Below are positions 3,285 to 18,603 of a DNA stretch of 57,246 bases, in pieces. The stretch covers positions 1 to 57,246 of IMG/VR virus record IMGVR_UViG_3300012030_000005; one strand, given 5' to 3'. The stretch's first letter is position 1. Each line of letters starts with the position of its first letter. Under the pieces are notes generated by a model. It did not search any database. It was not told the DNA's origin and worked only from the letters and a program-made list of their open reading frames with translations. The position numbers and the translations under genes are program-made. Source of the DNA: a virus.

Positions 3285-3644
3285 ATGCCTGCTCAAATCA
3301 TAGTTGATGTTGTCGGCACCGCCGAGCTCGACGGCAGCTACACGGTGACGTGGACTGCGACGGGCTCGACTGACATGCCGACGGAAGTTTTCGTTCACAA
3401 GTTCTCTACGGAAGAATTCGACCATGTCGCGAATCCTGGAGATCTCATCTGGCCGACTTCCAAAGACCCGACAAAAGCGTGGTATCGATTGGCCACGGCG
3501 TCGGCGAATTACCCCGACATCGACACCGCAGACGCAGCCAAGGCAGAAGTGCAGGCGGACCTGGGCTCGCTCGTCGACGCGTACGAAGCAGGGCTGTCGA
3601 CGTTTCTGACGCCAGACACACTCACCATTGACCCGACGCCCTGA
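3285..3644 (+). CDS. Hypothetical virion-type protein, 119 aa
   Basis: The ATG at 3285 follows GAGGATACGCC. The N-terminal part (IIVDVVGTAELDGSYTVTWTATG) is beta-rich; the C-terminal half (DTADAAKAEVQADLGSLVDAYEAG) is helical. It has no enzyme motif. The stop overlaps the next ATG (TGATG), so the two genes are probably translated together. Composition and placement suggest a small tail or head accessory protein. Confidence 0.55.
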   Translation: MPAQIIVDVVGTAELDGSYTVTWTATGSTDMPTEVFVHKFSTEEFDHVANPGDLIWPTSKDPTKAWYRLATASANYPDIDTADAAKAEVQADLGSLVDAYEAGLSTFLTPDTLTIDPTP

Positions 3645-4699
3645 TGGCTACCTCCTCGTTCGCACAGCAGCTTCGAAAGGCCGTCGTCAGTGACGCGGTC
3701 GCGAAGTATGAATTGGAAATGGCGATCACGGATCGTGGAGAAGTCCCAGATGCGGGGTTCTTCTTGATGCGGATCGTCTTGACAGATGACCCGAAACAAG
3801 ACGAGCTCGAGCGAGTTGCCGGCGTGGGAGACTTGTTTGAGTGGGAGATAGACCGACCCACAGCGCTACGAAACGGCCAGGACTTCTACCGAACCAGCGT
3901 CGTCACCAAGGTCTACGAAGACATCCAGGAAGCCATCACGGCAAAGGATTTCCTTGCCGAACAGGTCAACACCCTGGTCGATGATTACATCACCTACGAC
4001 ACGCAGTTTGAGGCGAACCCGACGCCAGAGATCTTCGAGTTCCCAGAACCTTCCGTGGGTGTACTGACGCCGCTTATCGAAGACTACGTGGCGAAGACCG
4101 AAGAGGTCGAGGCACAGCAAGAATTCCTGACGGAGAAAACAGCGGACTGCGCAGATCTCGACGCGGCCTATCAGGTTGCGCTCCAGGTTCGAGACGACCA
4201 GCAAGCTGCACTCGACGCGCTCAAGCGTACGCAGACCAGTATCAACGCTGCACTGAGTGCGATGCAGGCATTCAAGACAGTGAGTGAGAACCTGACGGGA
4301 GACGTCGTCTCTGCGTTGGAAGCGTGGGCATTGAACCGAGGTTCGATGAGCCCGGCACCCGAAGTCCAGGACATGGACGACGAGTTGCTGAGTGACCCGC
4401 CGGGCCCGGCAGGCACGCTGTACTCGGGGTACTATGACGAGTACGCGCCGGCAAAGATTACGTTCGACACGGCCATCCAGGTCGCAATTGCTGAGTCTTC
4501 TGAGATTGGGACCCGAGTCGCAGCGCAGACTACTGCACGTGACGACGCTCAGAATGAGGTCAATCAGGCTCTGTCAGATAAAGAAACGTGCGCGCAGGCA
4601 GAGGCCACGATATCGTCGGTGCTGGCCACACTCCAGCAGGAGCAGGCACAGCTTCTATCCGACATCGTGGCGCTCTGTCCTAACTACACGCCTCCCTGA
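3644..4699 (+). CDS. Coiled-coil structural protein, 351 aa
   Basis: The N-terminal third is a mixed fold. Residues of about 140-215 and 265-345 are long Ala/Glu/Gln/Asp helical stretches that should make coiled coils (for example AYQVALQVRDDQQAALDALK). A Pro/Gly/Tyr linker (SDPPGPAGTLYSGYYDEYAP) separates them. This is typical of fibres, whiskers or tail chaperones, not of enzymes. The gene ends 1 nt from the convergent 562-aa gene, leaving no room for a terminator. The exact role is unknown. Confidence 0.55.
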   Translation: MATSSFAQQLRKAVVSDAVAKYELEMAITDRGEVPDAGFFLMRIVLTDDPKQDELERVAGVGDLFEWEIDRPTALRNGQDFYRTSVVTKVYEDIQEAITAKDFLAEQVNTLVDDYITYDTQFEANPTPEIFEFPEPSVGVLTPLIEDYVAKTEEVEAQQEFLTEKTADCADLDAAYQVALQVRDDQQAALDALKRTQTSINAALSAMQAFKTVSENLTGDVVSALEAWALNRGSMSPAPEVQDMDDELLSDPPGPAGTLYSGYYDEYAPAKITFDTAIQVAIAESSEIGTRVAAQTTARDDAQNEVNQALSDKETCAQAEATISSVLATLQQEQAQLLSDIVALCPNYTPP

Positions 4700-4700
4700 T

Positions 4701-6389
4701 TCATGCAGGCAAAATCCCGTCTTGACGTGTGAAGCCCCGCCGGTGGACATGCCAGAAATCTTTCATGTTCTTGAGGAGTCCGAGACTGTAGCCGCCGCCC
4801 TGAGGCATGACGGCGGTGACGTAAGACGTGCCGTCGTCTCGGGTTGATACGATAGGCTCGTAACACTCCACGGCGTGAGACGAGCCCCCGAAACCTCCGC
4901 TGACCTTGATGCTGGTCATGCTCTGAGCGGCGTAGAACACGCACCGTATCAGGTCAGAGACTTCGATCTCTTCGGCTCGAGCATCTGCCTCATCAAGCTG
5001 TGAAAGCTCCCAAGGAGCCCATCGCCGAAACCACCGACGCATGGCTTCCCAGCTTGGGAAGGTGTAGAGCATGCGATCTCGCTGCGTGCCGCGCATCATG
5101 CGCCAGAGTACTTTACCCTGGCTGCGTGGACGTGAGACGCCCGCGAAGTAACCGGTTCGAATACGTCCTGTGTCGGCGACGTAGGAGAACTCATTCATTT
5201 TCAGCACAGCGCTTCGCTGGATCTCGTGAACGGGCGTCTTCTGACCCATTTTCGAAAGCCGCGCGAGTGCTTCTTCGTTGAGCTCGTCTTCGTGCTGCCG
5301 TCGGTGCGTGCACCGCACGCTGTAGCCTCTCCACGCCATGCAGTCGTACTTTCTAAGCACGCAGGCCTCGTCGCCTCTGCCGCACACTTCGTCATGTGCC
5401 TTGCGTGTCTTGGCGCCTTTTTTCGCTGCATCACGTCTCTTCTTTGTCTGACGATCAACGGACGGCCACGCCATCTTTATCCGGGAGATCGAGCTGTCCC
5501 GACCTGCGTTGACGGCGTTGGTGCTTACTCCGTACCACCCGTCGATGTCGATTTTATCCAGGAAGTTGGACACCTGCTTCGAGGACCACCTGGCGTCGCC
5601 TCGAAGACTGACTGCTCCGCTACCTAGCCGCCATTGCCGGAACCAGAGCGTGCGATCCAGGATGTCGGGGCTCACGGCGTCCAAAGCTTCCCGGAGGAAT
5701 CGAGTTCGGCAGAATATATCGTTGTGTGCGCAGCCTACGCAGCTATCGAAGCCAGGGTCGATGAGGACCCCGATGAGAGGGCAGGCGTCGTGCATGTCTT
5801 GGAAAGACACGGAGTGAAGCTCGCCCTGATACAGGGCGTGAATTGCGTACTCAGAAAACCCTGCTCGCCAGTCTTCCGTCGCGAACACAGCCGGATCGAA
5901 ATGGATGACTGCCTGCCAGGACTCGTCAAACCGGAGCGGTGCGACGGATGCCTTCGCGTAGACCCATTCGTTTTGGTCATTCTTTTTCCGGTAGATGTCG
6001 ACGCCCGGATGCGTGTGATTGTCGTAGAAATCGCGCAACCGGTCCTGGTTGATCCACCGGTAAAGCTGCCCGGGAACGCGAGGCAGGAGAGTGAGATAGA
6101 GCGTCGGATCGAAGTCGAGACTAAACTCAGCGCGCATGCGTGATTGCATCTCCTCAAGCAACGCCATGGTTCTCTTCTCCGGGTCCTCGACTCGAGGCGG
6201 AATGCTGAGCGCCACCAGCGGCGCTTTTTGCCGCGTTCGGTAGGAAGACGGAGCTTCTCTTGGCGGAGACCAATCTTCAGAGGCGTCTTCGGGGCGGAAA
6301 TCGTCGGAACAATGCTCAGGGCGATACTCCTCGGCGTACTCGACGTGAGTCCCGCAGAAGTAGAAATCTTCATCTTCGTAGTCCATCAT
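4701..6389 (-). CDS. 562-aa protein coupled to the reverse transcriptase
   Basis: I do not recognise a family. Its ATG (6389) overlaps the RT stop (ATGA), so it is almost certainly made together with the RT. The N-terminus is acidic and aromatic. The middle has Cys clusters (CVGCAHNDIFC near 235-245; CGRGDEACVLRKYDC, then RC about 355-385) that could bind metal. Between them lies a basic region (QTKKRRDAAKKGAKTRKAHD) fit for nucleic-acid contact. The C-terminal part is Trp/Arg-rich. RT systems often pair the RT with an effector or nucleic-acid-binding partner; here that is inferred only from the coupling. No nuclease or NTPase motif is evident. Confidence 0.65.
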   Translation of the reverse strand: MMDYEDEDFYFCGTHVEYAEEYRPEHCSDDFRPEDASEDWSPPREAPSSYRTRQKAPLVALSIPPRVEDPEKRTMALLEEMQSRMRAEFSLDFDPTLYLTLLPRVPGQLYRWINQDRLRDFYDNHTHPGVDIYRKKNDQNEWVYAKASVAPLRFDESWQAVIHFDPAVFATEDWRAGFSEYAIHALYQGELHSVSFQDMHDACPLIGVLIDPGFDSCVGCAHNDIFCRTRFLREALDAVSPDILDRTLWFRQWRLGSGAVSLRGDARWSSKQVSNFLDKIDIDGWYGVSTNAVNAGRDSSISRIKMAWPSVDRQTKKRRDAAKKGAKTRKAHDEVCGRGDEACVLRKYDCMAWRGYSVRCTHRRQHEDELNEEALARLSKMGQKTPVHEIQRSAVLKMNEFSYVADTGRIRTGYFAGVSRPRSQGKVLWRMMRGTQRDRMLYTFPSWEAMRRWFRRWAPWELSQLDEADARAEEIEVSDLIRCVFYAAQSMTSIKVSGGFGGSSHAVECYEPIVSTRDDGTSYVTAVMPQGGGYSLGLLKNMKDFWHVHRRGFTRQDGILPA

Positions 6390-7450
6390 TCGTTAGGAAA
6401 TGTCTCCTCGAGCTGCGTCAAAAGCGGCTCGATTGTTTGAGGGGAAATGCGGACCCAGTATCTGAGCTCCGCGAAGAGTTTATCCAGCGCCTGCGATCGC
6501 TGACGGGACGCGGCAAAGATGTTGTCCGCGTCGTAGCAGGGGTGTCGTTGCGTCACCATGTGGTGAACACGTGCACGCAACAGGCGCTTCTTCTCTCGGG
6601 GGACGTTGGGCTTTTTGTGGATGCTCATGCCGAGCATACGCTGCGGAGCGCTCTCTGCGGGACGCGACACGGCGACGCGGGTCTTCTTGTGGTTGAGATA
6701 GTAGCCAGAGTCTTTGACGACCTGACGTACCCCCTCCATGAACACATCAAACTCGTCTTTGGGGAGAAACCCATTGTACGAGATCGTCAGGTCGTCAGCG
6801 TACCGGGTGTAGTCCCAGTCAGTCAGACCTGCATTCTCCAGGTACGCCATCAAAGGCGCGTCGAGTCGAGCAGAAGCCACGTGGTTAGTGACCGCGCCGG
6901 ACGTGGGTGCGCCCTGAGGTACGACGTACGTCACACCATGGCGTCGACGAACTGGCACGGTGATCAGACCCGACATTGGCACGACGACCTCCATACCGTA
7001 GCCCAGGCCTTCGAGCCATTCACGAACCCACGTCCGCTTGGTGGAGCCGAAGAAATTGGACAGGTCGAGCGAGACGACCACATCTTTGTTCGTGTGCTTG
7101 TTTACGGAGTAAACCATGTCCCGGCCAGGGACGTAGGCTCCGACCCAGTCACCGACCGGGAGTTTGTTGAAGTAGACCTGCAAGAGGACACGCTGGACTC
7201 GCTTGAGCGTGGCTCGAGGTGCGTGAATTTGGCGAGACCCGCCGCTTTTTTTGGGAACCCGAAATACGTCGTAGGCTCCCCTTCCTGCTGCGATGCAGTC
7301 GATTTTCGATGCGTGTATGAGCCACCAAACCGTTCGGTTCTGCAGCCCCAACGACAGTGCGAAGCTCATGTCGTCGAATACGGCGGGCATGCCGTCTGGC
7401 AATCCCTCAGGAATCGCCAGGGAGACTAGACTCCCTGCCTGGTACGTCAT
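6386..7450 (-). CDS. Retron-like reverse transcriptase
   Basis: 354 aa. RT core in order: RVPKKSGGSRQIHAPRATLK (about 64-83), motif A SLDLSNFFGS (127-136), VPQGAPTSGAVTN (177-189), catalytic YADDLTIS (217-224), LNHKKTRVA (252-260) and LGMSIHKKPNVPREKKRLLRA (273-293). The latter parallels the thumb-side segment of retron RTs. It copies RNA into DNA. The start at 7450 follows GGAGAATCAG. It overlaps the upstream gene by 44 nt and the downstream gene by 4 nt, so there is no space for an adjacent msr-msd RNA as in typical retrons. The classic retron NAxxH and VTG signatures are not exact. Diversity-generating or abortive-infection RT types are less likely by motif style. Confidence 0.88.
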   Translation of the reverse strand: MTYQAGSLVSLAIPEGLPDGMPAVFDDMSFALSLGLQNRTVWWLIHASKIDCIAAGRGAYDVFRVPKKSGGSRQIHAPRATLKRVQRVLLQVYFNKLPVGDWVGAYVPGRDMVYSVNKHTNKDVVVSLDLSNFFGSTKRTWVREWLEGLGYGMEVVVPMSGLITVPVRRRHGVTYVVPQGAPTSGAVTNHVASARLDAPLMAYLENAGLTDWDYTRYADDLTISYNGFLPKDEFDVFMEGVRQVVKDSGYYLNHKKTRVAVSRPAESAPQRMLGMSIHKKPNVPREKKRLLRARVHHMVTQRHPCYDADNIFAASRQRSQALDKLFAELRYWVRISPQTIEPLLTQLEETFPNE

Positions 7451-8114
7451 CTGATTCTCCGTTTTCTTCTAGGTACGCAGCGAGGTGCTGCAGAAAGGTT
7501 GGACCGGCGATGGTGTGCACATGCTTGGCGCAGATCGGATCGCCGAAGAAACATCGACCGGCGGCGTTATGCGCGTATCGAGGACACTCAGAGCAGACGC
7601 CTCGGTCGGGCTCACCCTGTACAGCAAGCACAGGGTCGAGCAGGACTTGGGGCTCAGGTCGCGGCGGCTGGTTTCGACGGCCGCGCCAATTCCCTGCAGA
7701 GCGGTGACCGAAGTACTTCGGAGATCCATGACCGGAAGGACCCCGAGGCGGCGGAGCGTCGAGCGGATCACCTGAGCTACGCTCCGCCTCCTTGATGCGA
7801 GGCCAGCCAGACATCAGTACGGTCGGCACAGCCATGTACCAGTCCGACTCGATCTCGAAGAACTCAGGCAGGACTTCGATGAGCGTGTCTGCATGCTTGT
7901 CTTCGTAGGCGGGGGCATCGTGGTTCCATCCGGGTTCTTGAGAGTGAACGTGCACCTGCGCCCAGTTCTTGAGCCTCAACTGAGAGGGTCTCAACTCGAA
8001 CAGGGCGGGGAACGCAGCGCGGATGGCTTCGCGCTCGTCCTCTTTGTACAGGTACACGACAGTGAACGGCACCAACTCGGGGACGTTGCGCCGGGAAATC
8101 TTGAGTTTCAGCAT
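7407..8114 (-). CDS. 235-aa protein with Cys cluster, upstream of RT
   Basis: I take ATG 8114 as the start: it lies just after the stop (8116) of the vWA gene, so the frame further upstream is only a shadow. The N-terminal half is a compact alpha/beta region (MLKLKISRRNVPELVPFTVV). A Pro/Arg/Gly-rich linker follows (about 118-160). The C-terminal part has C-x2-C, then C and C (CSECPRYAHNAAGRCFFGDPIC, within about 185-210), a possible zinc or Fe-S site. It is placed between the vWA metallopeptidase and the RT, with a 44-nt overlap into the RT. Function unknown; membership of the RT module is inferred. Confidence 0.6.
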   Translation of the reverse strand: MLKLKISRRNVPELVPFTVVYLYKEDEREAIRAAFPALFELRPSQLRLKNWAQVHVHSQEPGWNHDAPAYEDKHADTLIEVLPEFFEIESDWYMAVPTVLMSGWPRIKEAERSSGDPLDAPPPRGPSGHGSPKYFGHRSAGNWRGRRNQPPRPEPQVLLDPVLAVQGEPDRGVCSECPRYAHNAAGRCFFGDPICAKHVHTIAGPTFLQHLAAYLEENGESDDVPGRESSLPGDS

Positions 8115-8115
8115 G

Positions 8116-9822
8116 TTACCTCTCGATGACGTGTCCAAATGAAATGTCCGAAGTGCGCGAGTTACTGGTCGTGAGCCAGATGGTCGGACAACTGGGGCGC
8201 ACCTTGTCGCTGGGCATCGGGGCGTAACCGTCGGTGTGGTAGACCACCACGTCGACAGTGTCGTAGTCGCGCAGAAGACGCCGCGTCTCTTCTGGGTTCG
8301 GAAGGCGAGGTGGCCTGCCCTCGTCGCGAATGTAGTTCGCAAGCATGAACGGGTCGTCGAACGTCGTGCCGCCGTATGACGTGCGGCCGATGGTTTTGAC
8401 GTACTCGTCAACATCCATGTCGGGCCCAACGACCTCCACCGAGGAGATGCGCGTGTCGCACTGAACGGCGATGAGATGCGCATCCTCATACGCGTCGAGG
8501 ATTCCTTTCATTTCGGAGAGGCCCTCTTTGATGTCGTTCTCGGACATCGAGCCCGAGGTGTCGATGGCGAAGAGAGCGACGTACGTGCGGTCCCGGGTAT
8601 GTCCGGGGTACTGTGGAATGGCACGCGCGTATCGCTCAATGAGGCCCGTGTCCTCATTGAAGAACCACAGAATGTGGCGCCGCTTGTGTGGACGGGTCAT
8701 GGTATTTTTTCGCCGAGCAAGCATACGTGCCACAACCATGTTCTTGAGTAGACGTGCCCATGGCACGATTGGCTCTTCGAGCATGGCGTCAATCTCGACG
8801 CGAAGGTCGGCCGGTACGGTACCGCGCGCGTTTTCTTGCTCACGTACCGCGTGCTTAACCAGCTCTTTTCCGGCTTCTTCCAGAAGCGTCGCATTGGCGT
8901 CGAGCTCTCCGGCGTCCATGCCAGAGTAGTCTGCGTCCGACTCTCCGGTGGGCTGCCCGTCTTCGGCCGGTCGAATCGACCACTCGTGTGCCCCTGCCTC
9001 CGCGAGGTCGGCCATTGCCTGGGCGGTATTCTCGAAGGCGTCGGTACCTGGAGCCCAGGAGTCCTGAGACTTCTGACTCTCGCCGGAGCCGGAGCCGGAC
9101 TGACCGTCGCCCTGGCTTTGACCCTGACCCTGACCCTCGCCGTCGCCTTTGCCCTGACCCTCGCCGTCGCCTTCCTCTTCGCCGCCTGGCGCCGGGGTGC
9201 TTTGTCCCTCTTCGTCGCATTTCTGCTTCCGTTCCTCCAGAATTTCTTGCATGCGCTGCATGAGGGCCTGGCGGTAACTCCACATGATTTCGAAGAGGTC
9301 CTCGAACGCAGCGTTTTTAGGCAACCCCAGCGGCTCTGGGAAAACCCAGTAACCGGAAGCACCGGTCCGCATGTGGGGAAAGTGTCGCTCGATCTGCTCG
9401 TTGAGCGTCGCGTCCATAGCCACATTCATGATGTGGTGCGCAGCGGCTCGATCGTTCGGGTCGAGAACTGCGAGACGGCGCATACTTCGCGGGATGTGAC
9501 GCAGAATGATGTGCATCGATTCGTGCGCGAGCGTACAGACGAACTCCGTGTAGGTTGTTCGCCGGGTCCACTCGGGGTTGTACAGCAGCACGTAGCTGCC
9601 GTGCAGAAAGCCGACGGCCATGTAGCCGACCTGCTTCGTTGCGTGAGTCTGCATGCCGGATAGCACGCGGGCGTAGAAGCTCAGCCTCGGATTCTTTGCT
9701 TGCGTCGAGCTGTGCAAGAAGAACAGAATCCAGGAACGAAAGGGGTCTTCCTTTCGTACTGCTTGCTCACTGCCCTCTTGCTCTGCTACTTTAAGCGGGC
9801 TTTTGTCGTCATTCATTCGCAT
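8116..9822 (-). CDS. Metallopeptidase-like plus vWA protein (MoxR partner)
   Basis: 568 aa. The N-terminal domain carries a zinc-peptidase-type HExxH (HESMH at 100-104). A low-complexity Gly/Gln/Glu/Ser linker follows (about 205-260). The C-terminal domain is a vWA fold with a MIDAS-type DTSGSMS (about residue 420) and a later HTDGYAP segment. This is the layout of vWA-like metallopeptidase proteins that work with MoxR AAA+ ATPases in remodelling or in conflict systems. A MoxR gene does lie 1.7 kb upstream on the same strand (11510-12856). The start is near 9822, after GGGAGAACCC. It leads the operon that contains the RT. Confidence 0.8.
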   Translation of the reverse strand: MRMNDDKSPLKVAEQEGSEQAVRKEDPFRSWILFFLHSSTQAKNPRLSFYARVLSGMQTHATKQVGYMAVGFLHGSYVLLYNPEWTRRTTYTEFVCTLAHESMHIILRHIPRSMRRLAVLDPNDRAAAHHIMNVAMDATLNEQIERHFPHMRTGASGYWVFPEPLGLPKNAAFEDLFEIMWSYRQALMQRMQEILEERKQKCDEEGQSTPAPGGEEEGDGEGQGKGDGEGQGQGQSQGDGQSGSGSGESQKSQDSWAPGTDAFENTAQAMADLAEAGAHEWSIRPAEDGQPTGESDADYSGMDAGELDANATLLEEAGKELVKHAVREQENARGTVPADLRVEIDAMLEEPIVPWARLLKNMVVARMLARRKNTMTRPHKRRHILWFFNEDTGLIERYARAIPQYPGHTRDRTYVALFAIDTSGSMSENDIKEGLSEMKGILDAYEDAHLIAVQCDTRISSVEVVGPDMDVDEYVKTIGRTSYGGTTFDDPFMLANYIRDEGRPPRLPNPEETRRLLRDYDTVDVVVYHTDGYAPMPSDKVRPSCPTIWLTTSNSRTSDISFGHVIER

Positions 9823-10847: not shown

Positions 10848-11518
10848 GCCGACGACAGCGAGCCGCAAAACGGCTGCTGCAAGACGTCGACACCAGCGCC
10901 TCCATTGTCTACATGAGCGCGCTGGCGTTGTTCGGCTCTCCTCTGCAGGAGTACGAGTACGAGACGCTCGAGCTTGAGTGCAATCACATGCAGCTCGACG
11001 TCCCTTCTCAGAACTGGGAAGAGCTCTACGCTGCACTGGCACTTCGCGGCGACGGGCGCTTCATGTACGAGGCGATGACGTTTGAGAACACGATCGTCGC
11101 GTTCAACGGAAAAGAGGCAGAGTCCGGAAGTCTCCAACCTGTCGCACCCGCTGAGATTGCGTGGGCTGTCCGAGAGGCAGACACCATCGTCGCGGATCTG
11201 GTCAATGAATCCATCGTAGATTGGCTAGACTACGAGCCCGTAGGCTACACGGCTGTGATGTGTCAGGCGCACGGCATGGTGTGCGTGCCGCCGAGTCTTT
11301 CGTTTTGCGAAGACCGACTCGACGAGCTCACGCCTGAATGCTCGAAGCTTCGAGCCGAGGTAAAAAAAGCGTGGGGCGAGCAGAAAGGCCTCGACCCACG
11401 CGAGATTGAGTTCGGAGAGGATGCGATCGGCATCCAACTCGCTCTCATGCACGCCGTAGAGACGTACGTCGAGAAGCGCGAGCAGATGCACGAACGTCAG
11501 CTCCAGCGGTTACTCTAG
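10844..11518 (+). CDS. Hypothetical protein, 224 aa
   Basis: It begins at GTG 10844, which overlaps the previous stop (GTGA). The start SRRQRAAKRLLQDVDTSASI is basic; the rest is acidic and helical, and the last 40 residues look coiled-coil-like (MHAVETYVEKREQMHERQLQ). No motif is recognised. It is coupled to the 337-aa K-x-A protein, so a shared virion-assembly role is plausible. The last 9 nt overlap the end of the convergent MoxR gene. Confidence 0.55.
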   Translation: MSRRQRAAKRLLQDVDTSASIVYMSALALFGSPLQEYEYETLELECNHMQLDVPSQNWEELYAALALRGDGRFMYEAMTFENTIVAFNGKEAESGSLQPVAPAEIAWAVREADTIVADLVNESIVDWLDYEPVGYTAVMCQAHGMVCVPPSLSFCEDRLDELTPECSKLRAEVKKAWGEQKGLDPREIEFGEDAIGIQLALMHAVETYVEKREQMHERQLQRLL

Positions 11519-12856
11519 GCCTTCCTCAGCGACGCGCTCGCGCTGCTGTTTGTCGCGCAGGTTCTCCGTGCGACGATCCCGAAACTCTTTGAACGCTGGC
11601 TGTTTGTGCAGCAGACGGACAAGACCGGTGGAGCGCTGAGAAGGCCCGCCCGTACTCGCGCCGACCTTTGAGTCTGCGTCTACGATGGCGTCCAACAGCT
11701 GCCCGCCGACGTCGGTCGGGACCATGTTGAAGATCTTGGCGAGGTGCGGTGCACAGTCTTCTGACGTGAATTCTTCGGCCTCGACACCTTCAGCCCACAC
11801 GATGGCCAGGTTGTTGAGCGCACCGGCGACGTGACCGGCATGTCCGGCTTCGAGCAGCTTCTCGACGCGTCGGCAAGAGCGATTATCCTCATCAGCGAAG
11901 TGCAGGAGCATGTCGCGCGGATCGAGCGCCGACGCCTCACGGTTGTGGTACTCGAGCAGCGACTTGGCGTGCGTGTGACCGATGTGACCGGCGAGCTTGG
12001 TCAGAAGAGCAAGCTGCATACTGGCGCTGGATGTGTCGATCTCGAGACGCTCCAACGTGTAGAGCGTATCGGAGCAGGCGTGCCAAGTCGACGGGCAGGC
12101 GAATATCTTGCCCGCGTCGCGCGCCTGTCTGTCCAGCGCGATGTCGACGTTGGCTTGCAGGAACTCAACAACGCTCGGATGCCACGGGCGTTTACGGTGT
12201 AAACCTACCGGCTCGAGAACGCCGTCTTCGCTGAGCTTCGGCATGTTGAATTGCGTCGCAGACGCAGGGTCCTTCGCCCATGCCAACAGATCGTTGACCG
12301 AGAAGTTGACGACGATCTGGCAGGTACGCCGACGCATGGCCGGGTCACTGCTGAAGCTCGACGTGACGGCGTAGTCACCGTCCGGGGGGTTCATATCGGA
12401 GACGACGATGACATTCTCTCCGAGCTCGTGCGTGCCGAGCTGTCGGTCGGTCCATACCTGGAAGGCAGCATTGTGCACGGTGCTGTCGGCACGGTTCACC
12501 TCTGCCAGGTCCATCATGACGAACCGGTCCTCGCCGGCGTGTCCCTTGATGGGGATGTTCGCCGGCGGCAGGTGCTGGAAGGTGACGCCGTCCGAAGAAG
12601 GCATCATCGGACCGGTGAGATCAGACGCCTCCTTGTGCGCCAGACCGTAGAAGAGGAAGTCGAGCTCGTTGTACTCAGCGAGCTGACGTAGAATGGCCGT
12701 CTTGCCGGTCGATGTTTCGCCGATGAGAAGCGGCACGTGCCTGTCGTATGCACAGAGCTGGATGACCCAGGCGGCCGTCTTGAGGCTCACCGGAACCAGG
12801 CCGATCTCCTCTGCGTAGTCGAGCGTCTTGTTGCTGGATGGTGATGCTTGTGTCAT
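11510..12856 (-). CDS. MoxR-type AAA+ ATPase
   Basis: 448 aa. Walker A is GETSTGKT (46-53), Walker B VMMDLAEVNRAD (about 109-120), sensor 1 VIVVSDMNP and an arginine-finger-type DPAMRRRTCQIVVNF. The C-terminal part is helical. MoxR ATPases act as chaperone-like remodellers with vWA proteins; the likely partner is the vWA/metallopeptidase at 8116-9822. The two are separated by two plus-strand genes. In phages such pairs are seen in some large genomes without a firm role. Cobaltochelatase-subunit-like or gas-vesicle-type activity is unlikely in this context. Confidence 0.8.
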   Translation of the reverse strand: MTQASPSSNKTLDYAEEIGLVPVSLKTAAWVIQLCAYDRHVPLLIGETSTGKTAILRQLAEYNELDFLFYGLAHKEASDLTGPMMPSSDGVTFQHLPPANIPIKGHAGEDRFVMMDLAEVNRADSTVHNAAFQVWTDRQLGTHELGENVIVVSDMNPPDGDYAVTSSFSSDPAMRRRTCQIVVNFSVNDLLAWAKDPASATQFNMPKLSEDGVLEPVGLHRKRPWHPSVVEFLQANVDIALDRQARDAGKIFACPSTWHACSDTLYTLERLEIDTSSASMQLALLTKLAGHIGHTHAKSLLEYHNREASALDPRDMLLHFADEDNRSCRRVEKLLEAGHAGHVAGALNNLAIVWAEGVEAEEFTSEDCAPHLAKIFNMVPTDVGGQLLDAIVDADSKVGASTGGPSQRSTGLVRLLHKQPAFKEFRDRRTENLRDKQQRERVAEEGLE

Positions 12857-12883: not shown

Positions 12884-13081
12884 TTATTGGTGATCGCTCG
12901 AGTCTCCGTATACGTGGTCGTGGTAACGACGCCAGTAATCGAGAGACCCAAACGTGAGAGTGAACAGGCCGTAAAGCGTGCCTGCGATGATAAGCAGGAA
13001 CACGAGACCCGGGTGGGCAATGCACGCGCCGAGAAGCGCGATCGCTGCCCACGCTAGAATTGCAAACTTGAGTAGTTTCAT
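12884..13081 (-). CDS. Small membrane protein, 65 aa
   Basis: Two hydrophobic segments (about 5-22, LKFAILAWAAIALLGACIA, and 25-46, GLVFLLIIAGTLYGLF) are followed by a charged tail with several His residues. The start codon (13081-13079) overlaps the start codon of the divergent terminase on the other strand. The Cys in LLGACIA is a weak lipobox candidate. A holin or membrane accessory function is possible for a protein of this size, but there is no direct evidence. Confidence 0.5.
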   Translation of the reverse strand: MKLLKFAILAWAAIALLGACIAHPGLVFLLIIAGTLYGLFTLTFGSLDYWRRYHDHVYGDSSDHQ

Positions 13082-14675
13082 GAGTGTGTTCCAGTCGATT
13101 AGACGCGAGGAAGAGAGTGTCGGGCAGTTTACCCGGTCTCAACTCACGGAAGCTATGGTGGTACTGGACGGGAAGAAGTTCTCGTTTGAGAACTACCCGT
13201 TTTACCGAGACATCTACGATGGGTACCACCAAGAGCTGGTGATGAAATGCGGCCGCCAGGTCGCTAAGTCGACTACTGGCTGCAACATGATCCTGACGAA
13301 CTCGGTTTCGCAGGACTACTTTCGAACGCTGTTTGTGTCGCCTACACAGCAGCAGACGACTCGGTTTTCGCACTCCCGTCTCCAGAAGGCGATCACCTAT
13401 TCTCCGTTGATCTCCAAGAATTACACCAGCACATCGATGCCGATGAACGTGCTGATGAAACACTTCTCGAACGGGTCGGAGGTCGTGCTTTCGTACGCCC
13501 AGGACGACCCGGACCGCGCACGTGGCGTCTCGGCGGACCAGGTCGTATGGGACGAGGTCCAGGACATCATTTACAAGTCGGTGGTGCCGGTCGTCAACGA
13601 GTGCATGGCAGAGTCGGAGCACGGGTGGACCTGGTACTTCGGGACACCGAAGTCGATGGAAAACACCATGGAGTTCCTTTGGCAGCAATCCACGCAAGAC
13701 GTGTGGATGATGAAGTGCACGGGGTGCAACAAATGGAACTACGTGACCACGGTCCGCTCGATCGGTAAGTCGGGCGTTATCTGCGTCAACTGCGGCAAGA
13801 AGCTGCGGCCTCGAGACGGGCAGTGGTACAGCATGAATCCGGGCGCCTACGTCCGCGGGTTCCACATCCCGCAGCTCATCATGCCACAGAACAATGAGGT
13901 GCAGGCCCGGTGGGACCGTATCCTTCACAAGTACAACACCTACCCAGACTCGCAGTTCAGGAACGAGGTACTGGGGATGAGCGACGCGATCGGCACGCGC
14001 ATGGTGTCGCTCGAAGAGCTCGAAGCGCTCTGCCGGAACTACACGATTGAGCGCAAGCCAGACCCCAAAATCTTCAAGCATGTCTCGAAGATTGTCGCAG
14101 GGGTCGACTGGTCGGGAGGCGGCTCCTCGACGTTCACGTCTCGAACAGCGATTCACGTCTGGGGTTTGCTGCCGAACGGCCAGATGAAGACGCTGTACTA
14201 CCACATCTTCCCGACCTCGAACCCGGTTAATGATGTGAAGGAAATCATCGAGATCTGTCGAGACTACAAGGTCTCTCTGGTCGCTGGTGACGCCGGAGTT
14301 GGCGCAGTCTCCAACGCAATGCTGGTCGACGCGCTTGGGGCAAACAAGGTCGTTCAGATTCAGTACGGCTCGATCTCGAAGATGCTCCGATGGAACAACA
14401 CAGATCGGTATATGGCGGACCGGACGGCAGCCATCGATTCGATGATGATGGACTACAAGCGAGGCCGCGTCGTCTTTGCGAAGCAGAAGCAGATGAAGCT
14501 CGCGATTCAGGATATCCTCGCTGAGTATGAGGAAGTTACGAAACAGGGTCAGGGGCGCCGGGTTTGGAACTGCTTCCCGGCCACCCCTGACGATGCTCTT
14601 CACGCCCAGGTATTCGGGCGCCTTGCGATGCAGATTGCCACCGGTCAGGTAGCGTTCTACCCAATGTCTCTCTGA
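13080..14675 (+). CDS. terL: Terminase large subunit (TerL)
   Basis: 531 aa from ATG 13080; a later ATG at 13155 has a better ribosome site but would cut the N-terminus. The ATPase domain has a Walker A-like CGRQVAKST (57-65) and Walker B VVWDE (155-159). A zinc-ribbon insertion follows (CTGCNKW ... CVNCGKK, about 205-235). The RNase H-like nuclease has VAGVDWSGGG, VAGDAGVGA and a C-terminal TPDDALHA as acidic sites. It pumps DNA into proheads and cuts it. No small terminase is recognised nearby. The stop codon lies inside the closing stem of the first structured-RNA unit, so the RNA array is effectively its 3' UTR. Confidence 0.9.
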   Translation: MSVFQSIRREEESVGQFTRSQLTEAMVVLDGKKFSFENYPFYRDIYDGYHQELVMKCGRQVAKSTTGCNMILTNSVSQDYFRTLFVSPTQQQTTRFSHSRLQKAITYSPLISKNYTSTSMPMNVLMKHFSNGSEVVLSYAQDDPDRARGVSADQVVWDEVQDIIYKSVVPVVNECMAESEHGWTWYFGTPKSMENTMEFLWQQSTQDVWMMKCTGCNKWNYVTTVRSIGKSGVICVNCGKKLRPRDGQWYSMNPGAYVRGFHIPQLIMPQNNEVQARWDRILHKYNTYPDSQFRNEVLGMSDAIGTRMVSLEELEALCRNYTIERKPDPKIFKHVSKIVAGVDWSGGGSSTFTSRTAIHVWGLLPNGQMKTLYYHIFPTSNPVNDVKEIIEICRDYKVSLVAGDAGVGAVSNAMLVDALGANKVVQIQYGSISKMLRWNNTDRYMADRTAAIDSMMMDYKRGRVVFAKQKQMKLAIQDILAEYEEVTKQGQGRRVWNCFPATPDDALHAQVFGRLAMQIATGQVAFYPMSL

Positions 14676-14785
14676 TTGCCATGATCACGCAGCTCCCGGA
14701 GGAGCTCGAGAAAAGCTCAGACACGAAAGTGTCTGGGAGATATGGCGACGAAACATCGCCCTCCACAAACGGGAGCCAATCAGAG
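14670..14785 (+). ncRNA. Structured RNA unit 1 of 4
   Basis: Closing stem: CTCTGATTG (14670-14678) pairs perfectly with CAATCAGAG (14777-14785) and contains the terL stop. Inside are hairpins AGCTCC/CGGA/GGAGCT (14691-14706) and CAGACAC/GAAA/GTGTCTG (14718-14735), the conserved hairpin GGCGACGAAACATCGCC (14744-14760; 5-bp stem, 7-nt loop) and a short 3' hairpin CTCC/GGAG. An alternative inner stem GCTCCCG/CGGGAGC (14692-14698 with 14770-14776) is also possible. The GNRA loop and A-rich loops favour the plus strand. No family is recognised. Confidence 0.65.
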
Positions 14786-14786
14786 G

Positions 14787-14941
14787 TGAGTTGCTGTGCT
14801 GAGCCTGGTCTTCCAGGCCTAGCTGGGTTGAGGAGCGTATGCGACGAAAACCGCGTGGCCAGGAAGACCTCGCTCGCGTTTGCTCCCGGTCCTACTTCAT
14901 ATGGCGACGAAACATCGCCCACCGAGATCGGTGCCAACTCA
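14787..14941 (+). ncRNA. Structured RNA unit 2 of 4
   Basis: Closing stem TGAGTTG (14787-14793) with CAACTCA (14935-14941), 7 bp, perfect. A long inner hairpin pairs 14807-14819 with 14857-14869 (12 of 13) plus GAGC/GCTC outside it. Its loop holds a decayed copy of the conserved hairpin (14838-14855). The conserved hairpin GGCGACGAAACATCGCC is at 14903-14919, followed at once by CACCG/AGAT/CGGTG and then the closing strand. It starts 2 nt after unit 1 ends. Confidence 0.62.
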
Positions 14942-14942
14942 A

Positions 14943-15059
14943 GTGCGCTACTAATTCTACACCTGGTTGCTAAACCAGGTGAAGAGATAGTGAAACAAAA
15001 TGTGGCGACGAAACATCGCCTCGAGGGATCGTCCTTGATCACCTCAGTGTCTAGCGCGT
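14943..15059 (+). ncRNA. Structured RNA unit 3 of 4
   Basis: Closing stem GTGCGCTA (14943-14950) with TAGCGCGT (15052-15059), 8 pairs including two G-U. Inside are a 9-bp hairpin CACCTGGTT/GCTA/AACCAGGTG (14960-14981), an A-rich single strand, the conserved hairpin GGCGACGAAACATCGCC (15004-15020), and a 3' hairpin GAGGGATC/GTCCTT/GATCaCCTC (15023-15045). The gap to unit 2 is 1 nt. Confidence 0.62.
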
Positions 15060-15064
15060 GCGTA

Positions 15065-15206
15065 TGAATGAACTACCATTTCCGCCGAAGTAGTGAGCTC
15101 GAGGCGGCCTGGTGCTCGGCTTCAAGCCGGCGGCCAGTACTAAAGTACTGCTATGATATGGCGACGAAACATCGCCCACAGCTAAGTGTCTGTACTAGTT
15201 CATTCA
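15065..15206 (+). ncRNA. Structured RNA unit 4 of 4
   Basis: Closing stem TGAATGAACTA (15065-15075) with TAGTTCATTCA (15196-15206), 11 bp, perfect. Inside are CCGCC/GGCGG (15082-15107), CGGCT/TCA/AGCCG, CAGTAC/TAAA/GTACTG (15135-15150), the conserved GGCGACGAAACATCGCC (15160-15176) and a weak ACAG/CTGT 3' hairpin. The 3' closing strand overlaps the end of the convergent minus-strand gene (stop at 15200). Confidence 0.62.
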
Positions 15207-15496
15207 CCCTCTTGTACCTCAAAATCCGGCGGATTTTTGTGCATCTCGAGCCACGACTCGTAGATGGAACTGAAGTCTTCGTTGAGCACCCCGAAGCCAA
15301 TGTAGCTCGACACCTTCGCGTGGAAGTTATCGAGCACGTCGATCGGCGTCAGGATGCTCTGTTCTTTGAGCACCGTGAGGTGAGCGGCGTCCTGAAGAGC
15401 GACGGTGTTCGTCGACAGGATAGCGTCAGGGGCGGCACTGCTCTGGCCGACTATGTAGCGACCGGGTGTCTCCATGGCGAGGGCGTAAATAGGCAT
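15200..15496 (-). CDS. Hypothetical protein, 98 aa, downstream of DNA polymerase
   Basis: Its ATG overlaps the polymerase stop (15496), so it is likely co-translated. The sequence MPIYALAMETPGRYIVGQSS opens a small mixed fold; the C-terminus is acidic. It has no motif that I recognise. As the last gene of the replication operon it ends inside the closing stem of RNA unit 4 on the other strand. A polymerase accessory role is only contextual. Confidence 0.6.
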   Translation of the reverse strand: MPIYALAMETPGRYIVGQSSAAPDAILSTNTVALQDAAHLTVLKEQSILTPIDVLDNFHAKVSSYIGFGVLNEDFSSIYESWLEMHKNPPDFEVQEGE

Positions 15497-18400
15497 CAGG
15501 CGGTCTCCGAGAAGAAGGTGAGCCCTGCCCGCTCCATGCGAGGACGGGCTTTCTTGAGGACGTAGTCCGGGATGTCGTCCGGATCGGATTCGAGCAGGCC
15601 GAAGTCGACGAGCTCACCATACGAAGGTCCAACTTCGAGGTCGTAGGCGAACGGAACGGGCAGCCAGGGGAACTTTCGCTTCACTTCGTCCACGACATAG
15701 TGGTCGAAGAAGGCACGCATCAGTGGCACCTTGTCGACATCGATTTCCCCGGCGATGGAGTCATGCACCGTGAGGAGCACTTCTCCGCTAATCTCTTTGA
15801 TGGCTTGCTCGACCGCACAGAGCTGCGAGAGGACGATGTCAGAAGCCGACGATTGGATTTTGAAGTTGACCGCCTGGCGCTCGCTCTTCCGAGCTTCCTT
15901 CCAGGAGGCGTTTCGAAGGTCGAAGCGACGACGTCGCCCGAAGTACGTTCGGACCTGGTCGAACAGTTGGACCTCCGCGATGGTCTTGGAGATGTACTCC
16001 TGAATCTTCGGGAAGCGCTCGAAGACCATGTCCATGACAGACTGCGCGAAGGCAATCTGCGTTTCACGCTCGGCTTCGTCGGTAGCCAGACCGCCGTAGA
16101 TCTGCTCGGCAATCTTGTAGGGACCGGCGCCGTAAATCAGGCCGAACACCACGCGTTTGGTAGCGGTTCGCTTCAGCTTGAGGTCGGGGTCGGTGTCCTT
16201 TCCAGCCACGAACTCTTCGTAGGTATGGTCGAACACGTGCGAGGCCACGAAGGAGTGAATATCCTGACCAGCTTTGAGCGCCGAAATCAGACGCTCGTCG
16301 CCTGCGTAGGCGCAGAGCACGCGAATCTCGGCTGCCGAGATATCGAGCTGGAAGTACACTTTTCCGGGCTCGCTCGGGATGAACAATGCCTTGATGTTCC
16401 ACCCCGGGCTCGAGACCTTCGTGAACTTGGGGTGCGGCGGGAATCGACACATCCACAGTGGAACGTTCTGCAGGTTGGGCGACGAAGAAGACAGCCGACC
16501 AGTCGCGGTTCCGTTCAGATTGAACGAGGTGTGGATACGTCCGTCGTACTGAGTCAACCGACGGAACTTCGCGAGGAATGACGAGATCGTCTTCGCTGCC
16601 TTCTTGTAAAGGCGTATGTAGTAGATGACTTCCTGCGTGAACTCGTCGGCGCACTCTTCCTGCTGTGTAGCCAACCAGGCGTCCGTGACGCTGATGGCTC
16701 CCGTGGCAGTGTAGGTGAACGCATCGGGGTCGATGCTCAAGACGTTGACCACCAGGTCTGCCATCTCGGCGCTGGAGTTCGGATTGAACTCGGGCTGGCA
16801 CACCATCTCTCGGATGATGCGAAGTGTGTCGTCTCGAAGTTGGCCGATCTCTTCTTCGTATTGGTCGAGCAGATCGTAGTCGAGCTTGGTGCCTCGATAC
16901 GACATGGTGGACAGTGAATCCGTTCCAGGCACGTACAGGTCGGCCATCACGTTCTCCAGGTCTCGTTGGAGCGTGACATTCGGCGTGGTCATGCCCAGGT
17001 CTCGCTGGCGTCGGGCGGCAATCATGCGTTGCCCGGCGCATACCTGTCTCGTTACGTCAGCGTCGACTGCGGCGTACCACAGGAGCATGTCGACCGGGAT
17101 GTCGTCGTAGCCATTGTCGCCGACGTCGAAGGAGCGGTCGTTGACGGTGTCAGGCGGGTCGAGGTCGTACTTCTTGCAGCGCCGTCGGATGCGACCTCGT
17201 GCGCGAGTCTTCGACTTCTTCTCGCCGTCGCGGTGCGCGTTGAGGTAAATCACTTCGTTCTCGAAGAGTTCAATACGGACGTCCTCTCCAAGACTTTCCC
17301 AGTCGATGCTGTCGTCTTCGGCAACTGGCTTGTATTCGAGGTCAGCGAAGAAGGGCATGATCTCCCATGATTCTTCGTGGTCGGGTTCGCGGTCTTCGTC
17401 TTCTCCGAGACCCTTAGCTTCGGCCAGCGCCTTCTTGACGAAGTTCGCTCGAAGTTCTTTCTCGTAGCCCATGTAACGGGGAGCGTAGAGCCCGATGACC
17501 TCTTTGAGGCCGTAGACACCGCTCTTGTCCTCGTCGAGGAAGTGCTCGGCAAGAATGGTATCCCACCACAGGTTGGGGACCTTGAGTCCTTTGCGGTTTC
17601 GCAGGAACTGGAGATCGAACTTTCCGTTGTGGAAGATTTTCTTGACGTCGCTTTCCAGGATGGGAATCACAGCTTCCCACGCTTCTTCGGCGTCGTAGTA
17701 GGAGCGAGGGTGGTCAAGGAGGATGGCGGTAGCCTGCCCCTTGTCCCAGGCCAGCGAGACGACCGAGGTGTGACCGTCAGTGCGATACGGGTTCTTGGTG
17801 TTCGTCTCGATGTCGACGCTCATCGCAGTGATGTCGCCAGATTCGATACGCTCGAGCAGGTCAGTGCAAACGTCGCGCACCTCTTCGATGTTCTGCGGAA
17901 TGATGTAGTCGGTCGTCAGTGAGTGGACGTCGACCTTATCCTCGCGCCCCTCTTTGAGGGACAGCGTGTAGGCTTTGGAGATGTCGTGACTCATCACTCG
18001 AGCGTAGCCCGGCTTGACGTAGAGCTGCGCTCTGCTGAACGTCGGACAGACCAACCACTCGTACCCACCGAATTCGGTGGCGACAGTTTTTCCGCGAACC
18101 TCTTTGAGGGTTCGTACGTCAGGAAGAAGTGCCTGCGTGCAGGCTTTTCCCAGCGGAACCAGGACGTGGTTTCGACCTGCATGCGGGCCGTGTTCGAATT
18201 GTCGACGCGCGTCGAGCAGCTTCTGGTTCATGTACTGCGAGCAAGCAGCGATCACCTCTTTGCCGGGGGCTTTTCGGGATTCTGCTCCTGTCAAATACAC
18301 GATGTTGTAGGCGATGGCTGTGCCGTGCTTCTCGGTCAGGTTCTGCATGAGCTGCGCGATGATTGCTTCGTCTCGGCTCCCCAGCGGCTGCACACGGTCG

Positions 18401-18603
18401 ATGGATTCTTGCCCCGGCGATGCCAGGATGATGGTCATGCTCGCCTGACTCAACCAGCGGCCCATCAGCAGGCACGAAGCGTCTTTGTTGGGGCAGGTAC
18501 TACAGAAGGTCCCCTTTTGGTTACTCGTCCACCGTGCGGGGGCTGCTTGGATCGCGCTCGAGTAGTTCTTCGAAGGGGTCGGTGTCGTTGTCTCGGTCGT
18601 CAT
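15496..18603 (-). CDS. UDG-like / family A DNA polymerase fusion
   Basis: 1035 aa. Residues of about 30-220 look like a uracil-DNA-glycosylase superfamily domain (Cys-rich FCSTCPNKDASC; LASPGQESIDRV; LVPLGKAC; CPTFSRAQ). A 3'-5' exonuclease follows with SVDIET, HNGKFDLQF and YAAVDADVTRQV. The polymerase has motif A LDISAAEIR (about 752), motif B RTATKRVVFGLIYG (about 812-825, Phe at the nucleotide-discrimination site) and motif C VHDS (about 944), where Ser replaces the usual Glu of HDE. Phage SPO1-type polymerases have a similar N-terminal addition. It is the replicative polymerase; the start overlaps the upstream gene by 83 nt. Whether the UDG part is active is unknown. Confidence 0.9.
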   Translation of the reverse strand: MTTETTTPTPSKNYSSAIQAAPARWTSNQKGTFCSTCPNKDASCLLMGRWLSQASMTIILASPGQESIDRVQPLGSRDEAIIAQLMQNLTEKHGTAIAYNIVYLTGAESRKAPGKEVIAACSQYMNQKLLDARRQFEHGPHAGRNHVLVPLGKACTQALLPDVRTLKEVRGKTVATEFGGYEWLVCPTFSRAQLYVKPGYARVMSHDISKAYTLSLKEGREDKVDVHSLTTDYIIPQNIEEVRDVCTDLLERIESGDITAMSVDIETNTKNPYRTDGHTSVVSLAWDKGQATAILLDHPRSYYDAEEAWEAVIPILESDVKKIFHNGKFDLQFLRNRKGLKVPNLWWDTILAEHFLDEDKSGVYGLKEVIGLYAPRYMGYEKELRANFVKKALAEAKGLGEDEDREPDHEESWEIMPFFADLEYKPVAEDDSIDWESLGEDVRIELFENEVIYLNAHRDGEKKSKTRARGRIRRRCKKYDLDPPDTVNDRSFDVGDNGYDDIPVDMLLWYAAVDADVTRQVCAGQRMIAARRQRDLGMTTPNVTLQRDLENVMADLYVPGTDSLSTMSYRGTKLDYDLLDQYEEEIGQLRDDTLRIIREMVCQPEFNPNSSAEMADLVVNVLSIDPDAFTYTATGAISVTDAWLATQQEECADEFTQEVIYYIRLYKKAAKTISSFLAKFRRLTQYDGRIHTSFNLNGTATGRLSSSSPNLQNVPLWMCRFPPHPKFTKVSSPGWNIKALFIPSEPGKVYFQLDISAAEIRVLCAYAGDERLISALKAGQDIHSFVASHVFDHTYEEFVAGKDTDPDLKLKRTATKRVVFGLIYGAGPYKIAEQIYGGLATDEAERETQIAFAQSVMDMVFERFPKIQEYISKTIAEVQLFDQVRTYFGRRRRFDLRNASWKEARKSERQAVNFKIQSSASDIVLSQLCAVEQAIKEISGEVLLTVHDSIAGEIDVDKVPLMRAFFDHYVVDEVKRKFPWLPVPFAYDLEVGPSYGELVDFGLLESDPDDIPDYVLKKARPRMERAGLTFFSETA

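What the first reader, a model, noticed from the sequence alone, without database searches (positions are those of the whole stretch)
14670..15206. Tandem array of four structured RNAs with one invariant hairpin and private closing stems
Seen directly: GGCGACGAAACATCGCC occurs four times (14744, 14903, 15004, 15160). Each copy lies in a unit whose two ends are complementary: 9 bp, 7 bp, 8 bp (two G-U) and 11 bp. The four stems have unrelated sequences, so pairing and not sequence is conserved. Units are 116, 155, 117 and 142 nt and tile the region with gaps of 1, 1 and 5 nt. Each has a short hairpin directly after the invariant one. The block fills the whole gap between terL and the convergent replication operon. 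Inference: an undescribed ncRNA family, perhaps a multi-copy regulatory, decoy or guide RNA. I know no family with this layout.
Basis: partly seen in the sequence, partly recalled or inferred. Interest (0 to 1): 0.93.

Follow-up and report, generated by a model that had tools for sequence, protein, structure and literature searches.

The report
Phage retron with four tandem templates
A large phage carries, side by side, what look like four different RNA templates for its own retron reverse transcriptase, and related phages carry similar arrays, so these viruses probably make sets of small single-stranded DNAs instead of the single one a bacterial retron usually makes.

Summary
In detail: four exact copies of a 17-nt hairpin, each inside a unit closed by its own stem, fill the gap after terL. 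The reading has to be turned over. On the minus strand each unit has retron msr-msd anatomy: a1, priming guanosine, variable stem-loop, invariant stem-loop GGCGAUG-UUU-CGUCGCC, msd, a2. The same strand carries, 7 kb away, an intact retron-type reverse transcriptase (PADLOC RT_XIII 7.7e-56; nearest PDB sequence retron Ec86). Of 80 bacterial RT relatives, 26 carry a G-UUU-C hairpin on the RT strand, five nearly identical to this one; the Ec86 locus shows the same layout. 39 of 80 viral RT loci share gene order around the RT; the RT tree follows the terL tree (Mantel r 0.85). Nine of 14 whole contigs examined hold arrays of three or more units, two more hold pairs; hairpin arms differ by compensatory changes, and in five of these 11 the array lies right after terL. 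Retrons are known, and one duplicated bacterial msr-msd is on record. Ten searches showed no report of natural multi-template arrays in phages or of a retron as phage core gene. msDNA production is inferred; the role is open (decoy or sensor versus superinfection defence).

The parts
15065..15206 (-). Retron ncRNA unit U4, first on the minus strand: a1 15196-15206, priming G 15195, SL1 15178-15193, SL2 15160-15176, msd in between, a2 15065-15075 (11 bp)
   Evidence: sequence (SL1 limits by eye); minus-strand fold -55.9; best a1/a2 helix with G on both sides
14943..15059 (-). Retron ncRNA unit U3: a1 15052-15057, priming G 15051, SL1 15023-15045, SL2 15004-15020, a2 14945-14950 (6 bp on this strand)
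   Evidence: (SL1 by eye)
14787..14941 (-). Retron ncRNA unit U2: a1 14935-14941, priming G 14934, SL1 14920-14933, SL2 14903-14919, a2 14787-14793 (7 bp)
   Evidence: (SL1 by eye)
14670..14785 (-). Retron ncRNA unit U1: a1 14777-14785, priming G 14776, SL1 14761-14775, SL2 14744-14760, a2 14670-14678 (9 bp); overlaps the terL stop codon
   Evidence: by eye; the script's best helix for this unit was another pairing, and the MFE fold uses a competing stem in place of SL1
6386..7450 (-). Retron-type reverse transcriptase, 354 aa, YADD intact
   Evidence: Pfam RVT_1 6e-16; PADLOC RT_XIII 7.7e-56; PDB best retron Ec86 RT 1.7e-15; YADD at residue 217
7407..8138 (-). P8: 243-aa protein with four cysteines invariant in 23 aligned relatives, upstream partner of the RT in the phage family
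   Evidence: synteny, alignment A4; no Pfam, PHROG, PADLOC or fold match of weight
4701..6389 (-). P9: 562-aa protein overlapping the RT stop by 4 nt, eight cysteines invariant in 20 aligned positional relatives; candidate effector or partner
   Evidence: synteny, alignment A3; no convincing family match; AF2 model poor, pLDDT 49
8116..9822 (-). VWA / metallopeptidase-like protein (DUF2201), syntenic neighbour
11510..12856 (-). ATPase (phrog_1297; 'MoxR-like' is recalled), syntenic neighbour
12978..14675 (+). terminase large subunit (terL)
15200..15496 (-). 98-aa gene next to the array, found also in L037 and L046 at the same place
15496..18603 (-). family A DNA polymerase, nearest large gene of the convergent replication operon

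Best explanation
The block encodes four tandem retron template RNAs (msr-msd) on the minus strand. SHOWN by sequence: each unit has an a1/a2 closing stem, a G directly after a1 (and a G directly before a2), a variable stem-loop, then one stem-loop that is invariant in this genome (7 bp, UUU loop), then a unit-specific stretch. SHOWN: the genome carries a retron-type RT with intact YADD on the same strand, and the RT and arrays of this kind recur together in related large phages. INFERRED from known retron biochemistry: the RT binds the common stem-loop of all four RNAs, primes from the 2'-OH of the G next to a1, copies each msd, and so makes four different branched msDNAs. Tandem duplication followed by divergence probably built the set. 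INFERRED, weaker: P8 and P9, the conserved Cys-rich neighbours, join the RT-msDNA particles, and the msDNA set serves the phage as decoys or sensors for ssDNA- or replication-linked proteins (about 0.4), or as the sensor of a phage-borne exclusion system against rival phages (about 0.3); other roles about 0.3. The confidence below is for 'retron template array', not for the role.
For: (1) RT identity; 10 of 10 further viral RTs tested (7 of the synteny family, 3 others) also have RT_XIII as best PADLOC model. (2) Ec86, fetched from E. coli C, has the same layout: a1 TGCGCACCCTTA, then G; a2 preceded by G; hairpin GGATGTTG-TTT-CGGCATCC. A review reports that a C-terminal fragment of the Ec86 RT binds an 8-bp msr stem with a UUU loop and that the a1 stem contains, or ends directly before, the priming G (PMC6868368 passages). 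(3) Of 80 bacterial RT loci, 26 have G-UUU-C hairpins on the RT strand, 30 hits against 4 on the other strand by subtraction from the total; five loci (L126, L129, L133, L142, L180) have ones that differ from the window's only in the outer pairs, 0.2-0.7 kb upstream of the RT match. (4) G after a1 and G before a2: 25 of 43 units on the RT strand, 4 of 43 on the opposite strand, 8.3% with shuffled flanks (11 viral loci, the window among them). (5) Syntenic arrays with different arms in L037 and L046. (6) Triloop-hairpin chains: 22, of which 10 with three or more copies, in the 80 viral RT loci against 0 in block-shuffled copies; none in 207 kb of terL relatives (15 pieces; no RT in the 12 pieces tested for it). 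(7) Lower minimum energy on minus in 4 of 4 units. (8) RT and terL trees agree: 33 loci, Mantel r 0.852, 0 of 2000 permutations; 12 splits supported in both.
Against: No msDNA or transcript was seen; nothing here is experimental. The array is 7 kb from the RT, while a classic retron has its ncRNA beside it. Retron signatures are changed in this clade: NAxxH is [SAT][VAS]xxH in the 19 of 33 rows that were listed, VTG is LLG/VLG/MLG/FLG in 31 of 31 rows with letters. The priming context is TGGC, TAGA or TAGT, not the usual TAGC. The a1/a2 stems alone are weak: only 6 of 37 units tested beat 95 of 100 shuffles, among the window's units only U4, and for U1 the script chose another pairing. 18 of 43 units lack the G/G pattern. 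Unit 1 has the better z-score on plus. RT relatives outside the phage clade are at most about 36% identical. 3 of 14 whole contigs showed no convincing array and 2 of the other 11 only two copies; shuffled contigs gave 5 chains in 2.08 Mb. Only 6 of 39 loci showed a chain in the up to 1.6 kb held after terL, the window's twin included; in several of these loci less than 1 kb was held. Two RT splits conflict with terL.
Confidence: 0.92

Rival explanations
1. A new family of plus-strand regulatory, decoy or guide RNAs unrelated to the RT.
For: Plus strand also folds far better than shuffles (z -5.7; unit 1 better than on minus); unit 3's closing stem is 8 bp with two G-U on plus but 6 bp on minus.
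Against: Minus strand has the lower energy in 4 of 4 units; loop UUU and flanking anatomy match retrons; the G/G mark is on the RT strand, 25 of 43 against 4 of 43; arrays were found with the RT and not in the terL relatives without it.
Confidence: 0.04
2. DNA-level elements: a set of palindromic protein-binding sites (partition, origin or packaging site) next to terL; a ParB-like protein is encoded at 24046-25281.
For: The 17-mer is an inverted repeat; ParB domain; location after terL.
Against: Does not explain private closing stems, the G next to them, the strand bias, or like hairpins upstream of bacterial retron RTs. Arrays also lie away from terL, e.g. G006 near 101 kb with RT near 52 kb.
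Confidence: 0.03
3. Same anatomy but decayed or inert retron relics, or transcripts that only occupy the RT (no msDNA).
For: Changed NAxxH and VTG motifs; array away from the RT.
Against: YADD or YSDD in 33 of 33 family RTs, motif A Asp in the 26 of 33 rows listed; hairpin arms keep pairing while changing sequence; gene order kept and RT inherited with terL.
Confidence: 0.12
4. The msDNAs edit the phage genome (natural recombineering donors).
For: Engineered retrons do this (PMC12548924 passages).
Against: No msd of the window matches its own 101-kb twin contig beyond 15 nt (best E 0.12).
Confidence: 0.03

Closest known systems
Retron Ec86 (Eco1)
   Same: a1/a2 stem, G after a1, G before a2, two msr stem-loops of which the second ends in G-UUU-C, then msd (fetched and checked)
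   Different: one ncRNA upstream of the RT in a bacterial chromosome, with an annotated effector; here four ncRNAs, 7 kb from the RT, in a phage, with unknown partners P8 and P9
PADLOC type XIII retrons (RT_XIII)
   Same: best RT model for the window RT and for 10 of 10 other viral RTs tested
   Different: accessory genes of type XIII were not compared; P8 and P9 match no PADLOC model; NAxxH and VTG changed
Retron Nex1 (Ne160), Nannocystis
   Same: review reports several apparently duplicated msr-msd repeats (PMC6868368 passage)
   Different: those repeats have no RT within a kilobase and are bacterial; here the msds are unlike each other but share the hairpin, in a phage that carries the RT
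Saprospiraceae retrons L174 and L181
   Same: three and two tandem msr-msd-like units upstream of the RT, UUU hairpins with compensatory changes
   Different: bacterial MAGs; their units also share msd sequence; spacing 240-270 nt; the G/G mark was not seen there

Membership tests
Retron | retron-type reverse transcriptase with catalytic YXDD | tested here: met
Retron | RT signature motifs NAxxH and VTG | tested here: not met
   window SVNKH and MLG; the clade has LLG/VLG/MLG/FLG in 31 of 31 rows with letters. NAxxH as a signature is recalled. Verified retrons Eco6 and Vch2 also depart at VTG (PMC6868368), so I treat this as variation within the kind
Retron | ncRNA closed by complementary a1/a2 | tested here: met
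   11, 6, 7 and 9 bp on the minus strand; as a lone statistic weak, 6 of 37 units beat 95 of 100 shuffles
Retron | priming guanosine in or directly after a1 | tested here: met
   all four window units by inspection, 3 of 4 by script; 25 of 43 units in 11 viral loci with G/G. TAGC context itself not met (TAGA, TAGT, TGGC)
Retron | msr stem-loop recognised by RT, UUU loop in Ec86 | tested here: met
   sequence feature only: 4 of 4 window units; relatives also have UUA, CUA, UAA and other loops; binding not testable here
Retron | production of 2'-5' branched msDNA | not testable with these tools
   needs experiment
Retron | ncRNA adjacent to RT | tested here: not met
   7 kb apart in the window; within about 1.2 kb upstream in L067, L074, L100, L108, L174, L181
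Known Rfam RNA family | score above the gathering threshold | tested here: not met
   no match in the window nor at E<=10 in the block; the Ec86 locus also has none
Type XIII retron | type-specific accessory proteins | not tested
   only the RT model was matched; P8, P9 without PADLOC hit

The most novel reading that the evidence does not exclude
A family of large phages carries a retron as vertically inherited core equipment: one RT, two new Cys-rich partners, and a tandem, evolving set of template RNAs (from two to at least eight), so each virus makes its own repertoire of msDNAs during infection and uses it on the virus's behalf (decoys against host retron or nuclease sensors, or exclusion of rival phages). 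Retrons would then be viral tools as well as bacterial defences.
Probability: 0.55. Interest if true: 0.92.

Novelty: new variant of a known kind. Interest (0 to 1): 0.86.

Why it matters
Retrons are described as bacterial anti-phage systems, typically with one template RNA. A phage lineage that keeps a retron RT as a core gene and feeds it a set of templates with a shared recognition hairpin would turn that picture round, and would give a natural design for making several msDNAs from one locus, of direct use for multiplexed retron editing. It also makes a question testable: does the RT recognise only this hairpin? Phage arrays hold natural variants of it, and between phages its arms have changed by compensatory substitutions.

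Tried and rejected
Tested and dropped: tRNA or tmRNA (none); Rfam families (one sub-threshold gyrA hit elsewhere); a protein frame across the block; own-genome targets of the msds; a fifth unit beside the window's RT: GTCGATGTTTCTTCGGC at 7542-7558 (3 mismatches) lies in the P8 reading frame, and I leave it as probable chance. A promoter and terminator scan of the block gave counts near those of shuffles (1 against 0.6, 2 against 1.0) and was not used. A terL search by single protein found only the twin contig and two remote hits; terL alignment A1 found relatives that served as controls. The first hairpin scans asked for UUU loops and missed UUA, CUA and UAA loops; widened. The 13-mer search of 41 contigs was near its reversed-pattern background and was used only for handles and leads. 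P9 model too poor to search (pLDDT 49); P8 model (pLDDT 67) found nothing in the PDB (best E 4.6). Pfam hits for one or two members of P8 and P9 (DDE transposase, DciA, DUF7122 and others, E 0.0014-0.07) were judged chance. L020, one of the 12 sequences tested, also had a relative of the gene at 9834; none of the 12 had RT, ATPase or VWA in the stretch held.

Limits of counts. 39 of the 80 viral loci have the VWA gene upstream of the RT (33 distinct RTs in the tree), a further ORF between the two in 37 of 39, and a P9-sized ORF (378-562 aa) after the RT in 26 of the 27 loci where the next gene (relative of window 3644-4699) was found; that ORF overlaps the RT end, by its first start codon, in 20 of 26. 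Several loci are near-duplicates or contig fragments. Whole contigs: 14 of 42 virus handles were read in full (G001 and 13 others). Three or more units: G001, G002, G006, G011, G016, G022, G031, G032, G036; two: G010, G026; not counted: G008, G014, G019, although each shows two-copy chains (my reading). G032 lies outside the terL-VWA gene-order family. Array within about 0.5 kb of the terL end, by coordinates: G001, G002, G011, G031, G036. Of the 22 chains, several two-copy ones (L070, L071, L105, L111) look like chance; bacterial GC-rich loci also gave many chance-like chains. The 37 hairpins were chosen as paired hairpins, so 259 of 259 pairs holds by selection; both L048 hairpins (2 of 39 rows) were dropped for length. 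One search used simple letter shuffles, dinucleotide shuffles.

Literature: ten full-text searches listed no paper that I could recognise as describing natural msr-msd arrays in phages; I judged this from titles and abstract starts. Mestre et al. 2020 is not held, and subscription papers and bioRxiv are outside the library. Read as passages: PMC6868368, PMC8934634, PMC12548924. PMC13158370 seen only as listing and abstract start.
Full report
WHAT WAS CHECKED. Chance gives 0.47 such matches per window at up to 3 mismatches, and 0 of 100 shuffles reach five. Folding is far below shuffles on both strands. The minus strand has the lower energy in each unit: U4 -55.9, U3 -49.4, U2 -66.6, U1 -50.1 against -52.4, -48.1, -64.9, -47.6 kcal/mol; by z-score minus is better for three units and plus for unit 1. 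On the minus strand the invariant element becomes GGCGAUG-UUU-CGUCGCC, 7 bp with a UUU loop; on the plus strand only 5 bp pair.

THE PARTNER. The window encodes a retron-type RT at 6386-7450, minus strand: Pfam RVT_1 6e-16, PADLOC RT_XIII 7.7e-56, NCBIfam retron_St85 1.3e-44 but below that model's cut-off, best PDB sequence retron Ec86. Read on the RT strand, each unit is a1, G, variable stem-loop SL1, invariant stem-loop SL2, AUAU or ACAU, unit-specific msd, a2. This is the order in Ec86, which I fetched from an E. coli genome: a1 TGCGCACCCTTA, then G, SL1, SL2 GGATGTTG-TTT-CGGCATCC, msd, a2 TAAGGGTGCGCA preceded by G. The review PMC6868368 says that a C-terminal fragment of the Ec86 RT binds such an 8-bp UUU stem-loop and that the a1 stem contains, or ends directly before, the priming guanosine (passages).

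BACTERIAL RELATIVES. A script that asks for a UUU hairpin closed by G-C found 30 hits in 26 of these 80 loci on the RT strand, and 4 on the other strand by subtraction from the total of 63; most lie 0.2-0.7 kb upstream of the RT match. Five loci (L126, L129, L133, L142, L180) have hairpins that differ from the window's only in the outer pairs; the others have different arms. The best a1/a2 pairing scores 7 or more in 22 of the 30. Two Saprospiraceae MAGs have two (L181) and three (L174) units in tandem. The other 54 loci showed no such hairpin; they were not searched for other loops in the same way.

VIRAL RELATIVES. The RT alignment found 80 viral loci out of 359 confirmed. In 39 of them the VWA gene lies upstream of the RT, with an ORF in between in 37; a P9-sized ORF follows the RT in 26 of the 27 where the next gene was found, overlapping the RT end in 20. 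terL (42-71% identical in 36 of the 38 other loci that have it), the ATPase and the two genes opposite recur in the same order. P8 has four invariant cysteines in 23 sequences, P9 eight in 20. RT and terL trees from 33 non-redundant loci agree (Mantel r 0.852, 0 of 2000 permutations; 16 of 30 splits shared, 12 with support in both, 2 RT splits in conflict). The RT is thus mostly inherited with the phage. YADD or YSDD is intact in 33 of 33.

ARRAYS IN THE RELATIVES. In the two closest phages the same gap holds an array: L037 (terL 71%) has GTAGGCG-UUA-CGCCUAC in four units, one of them with a CUA loop, plus GACAGCG-UUA-CGCUGUC; L046 (terL 66%) has three units of (A/G)(A/G)CAGCG-CUA-CGCUG(C/U)U and one more distant. 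In the window, L037 and L046 the hairpin is nearly uniform within the genome and different between genomes. In others (G006, L053, L067, L074) the arms differ between units of one genome too, and still pair. Other viral loci have 2 to at least 8 units, some directly upstream of the RT (L067, L074, L100, L108), some after terL, some elsewhere (G006, G016). Chains of such hairpins: 22 in the 80 loci, 0 in block-shuffled copies; 0 in 207 kb of terL relatives and Arash, 12 of whose 15 pieces were tested for the RT and had none. In whole contigs the shuffled control gave 5 chains in 2.08 Mb, so single two-copy chains there are weak. I count arrays of three or more in 9 of 14 whole contigs and pairs in 2 more; in five of these 11 (G001, the window's twin, included) the array ends within about 0.5 kb of the terL end.

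A STRAND-SPECIFIC MARK. For 43 units in 11 viral loci I took the best a1/a2 helix by score alone and looked at the next bases. G after a1 together with G before a2: 25 of 43 on the RT strand, 4 of 43 on the other strand, 8.3% with shuffled flanks. It was not seen in the bacterial L174 and L181 units as paired by the script. The stems by themselves are not strong evidence: 6 of 37 units beat 95 of 100 shuffles.

EVOLUTION. In L037 units 1 and 2 are 92.6% identical over 108 nt while others are diverged, so arrays seem to grow by tandem duplication. In the window the four msds share nothing significant with each other or with the rest of the twin contig.

MECHANISM. Shown: anatomy, RT, hairpins that keep pairing while changing, gene order. 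Inferred: the RT binds the common hairpin and makes four msDNAs. Weakly inferred: P8 and P9 bind the particles. The role is open. The conserved, mostly vertically inherited gene set argues against a passing defence island and for a role in the phage's own cycle. I lean to decoy or sensor use, because bacterial retron Eco8 is reported to be triggered by phage SSB proteins (abstract start of PMC13158370 in the search listing only), and a phage with several msDNAs could blunt such sensors. Exclusion of rival phages by a P8/P9 effector is the main rival.

KNOWN OR NEW. By anatomy it is a retron; the RT motif deviations, the distance from the RT and the lack of known accessory genes make it a new variant. 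Multiple msr-msd copies have one precedent in Nannocystis. I did not find natural phage arrays or a phage-core retron in the ten searches listed under Tried and rejected.

Noticed in passing
L174 3780-4640; L181 4040-4640: Bacterial (Saprospiraceae MAG) retrons with three and two tandem msr-msd-like units whose SL2 arms differ by compensatory changes while the hairpin with GTTGGCTTCC/GAAGCCAAT arms is shared.
   Followed up: partly
L102 1-1100: Array of at least eight UAA/CAA-loop hairpin units upstream of the terL end in a 10-kb phage contig, the longest array seen.
   Followed up: partly
G036 contig, about 8.3-8.6 kb and 76.3-76.7 kb; G022 contig, about 22.3 kb and 132 kb: Single phage contigs that seem to hold two separate hairpin arrays.
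   Followed up: no
window 4701-6389 and 7407-8138: Two fast-evolving protein families with invariant cysteine clusters and no convincing relative in Pfam, PHROGs or PADLOC, flanking the RT.
   Followed up: partly
window 24046-25281: ParB/KorB-like partition protein.
   Followed up: no
window 33772-33803 and 34151-34182: 32-nt direct repeat, 91% identical, 379 bp apart, before the long ORF at 34271; possibly a phage promoter (the promoter idea is a guess).
   Followed up: no
window 57034-57246: 15-nt tandem repeat GGAAGAAGAGTCCGA that runs to the window end.
   Followed up: no
L117 6104-6313: Three hairpins with ACTGCGC/GCGCAGT arms after a retron RT in Polyangium, possibly another tandem set.
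   Followed up: no
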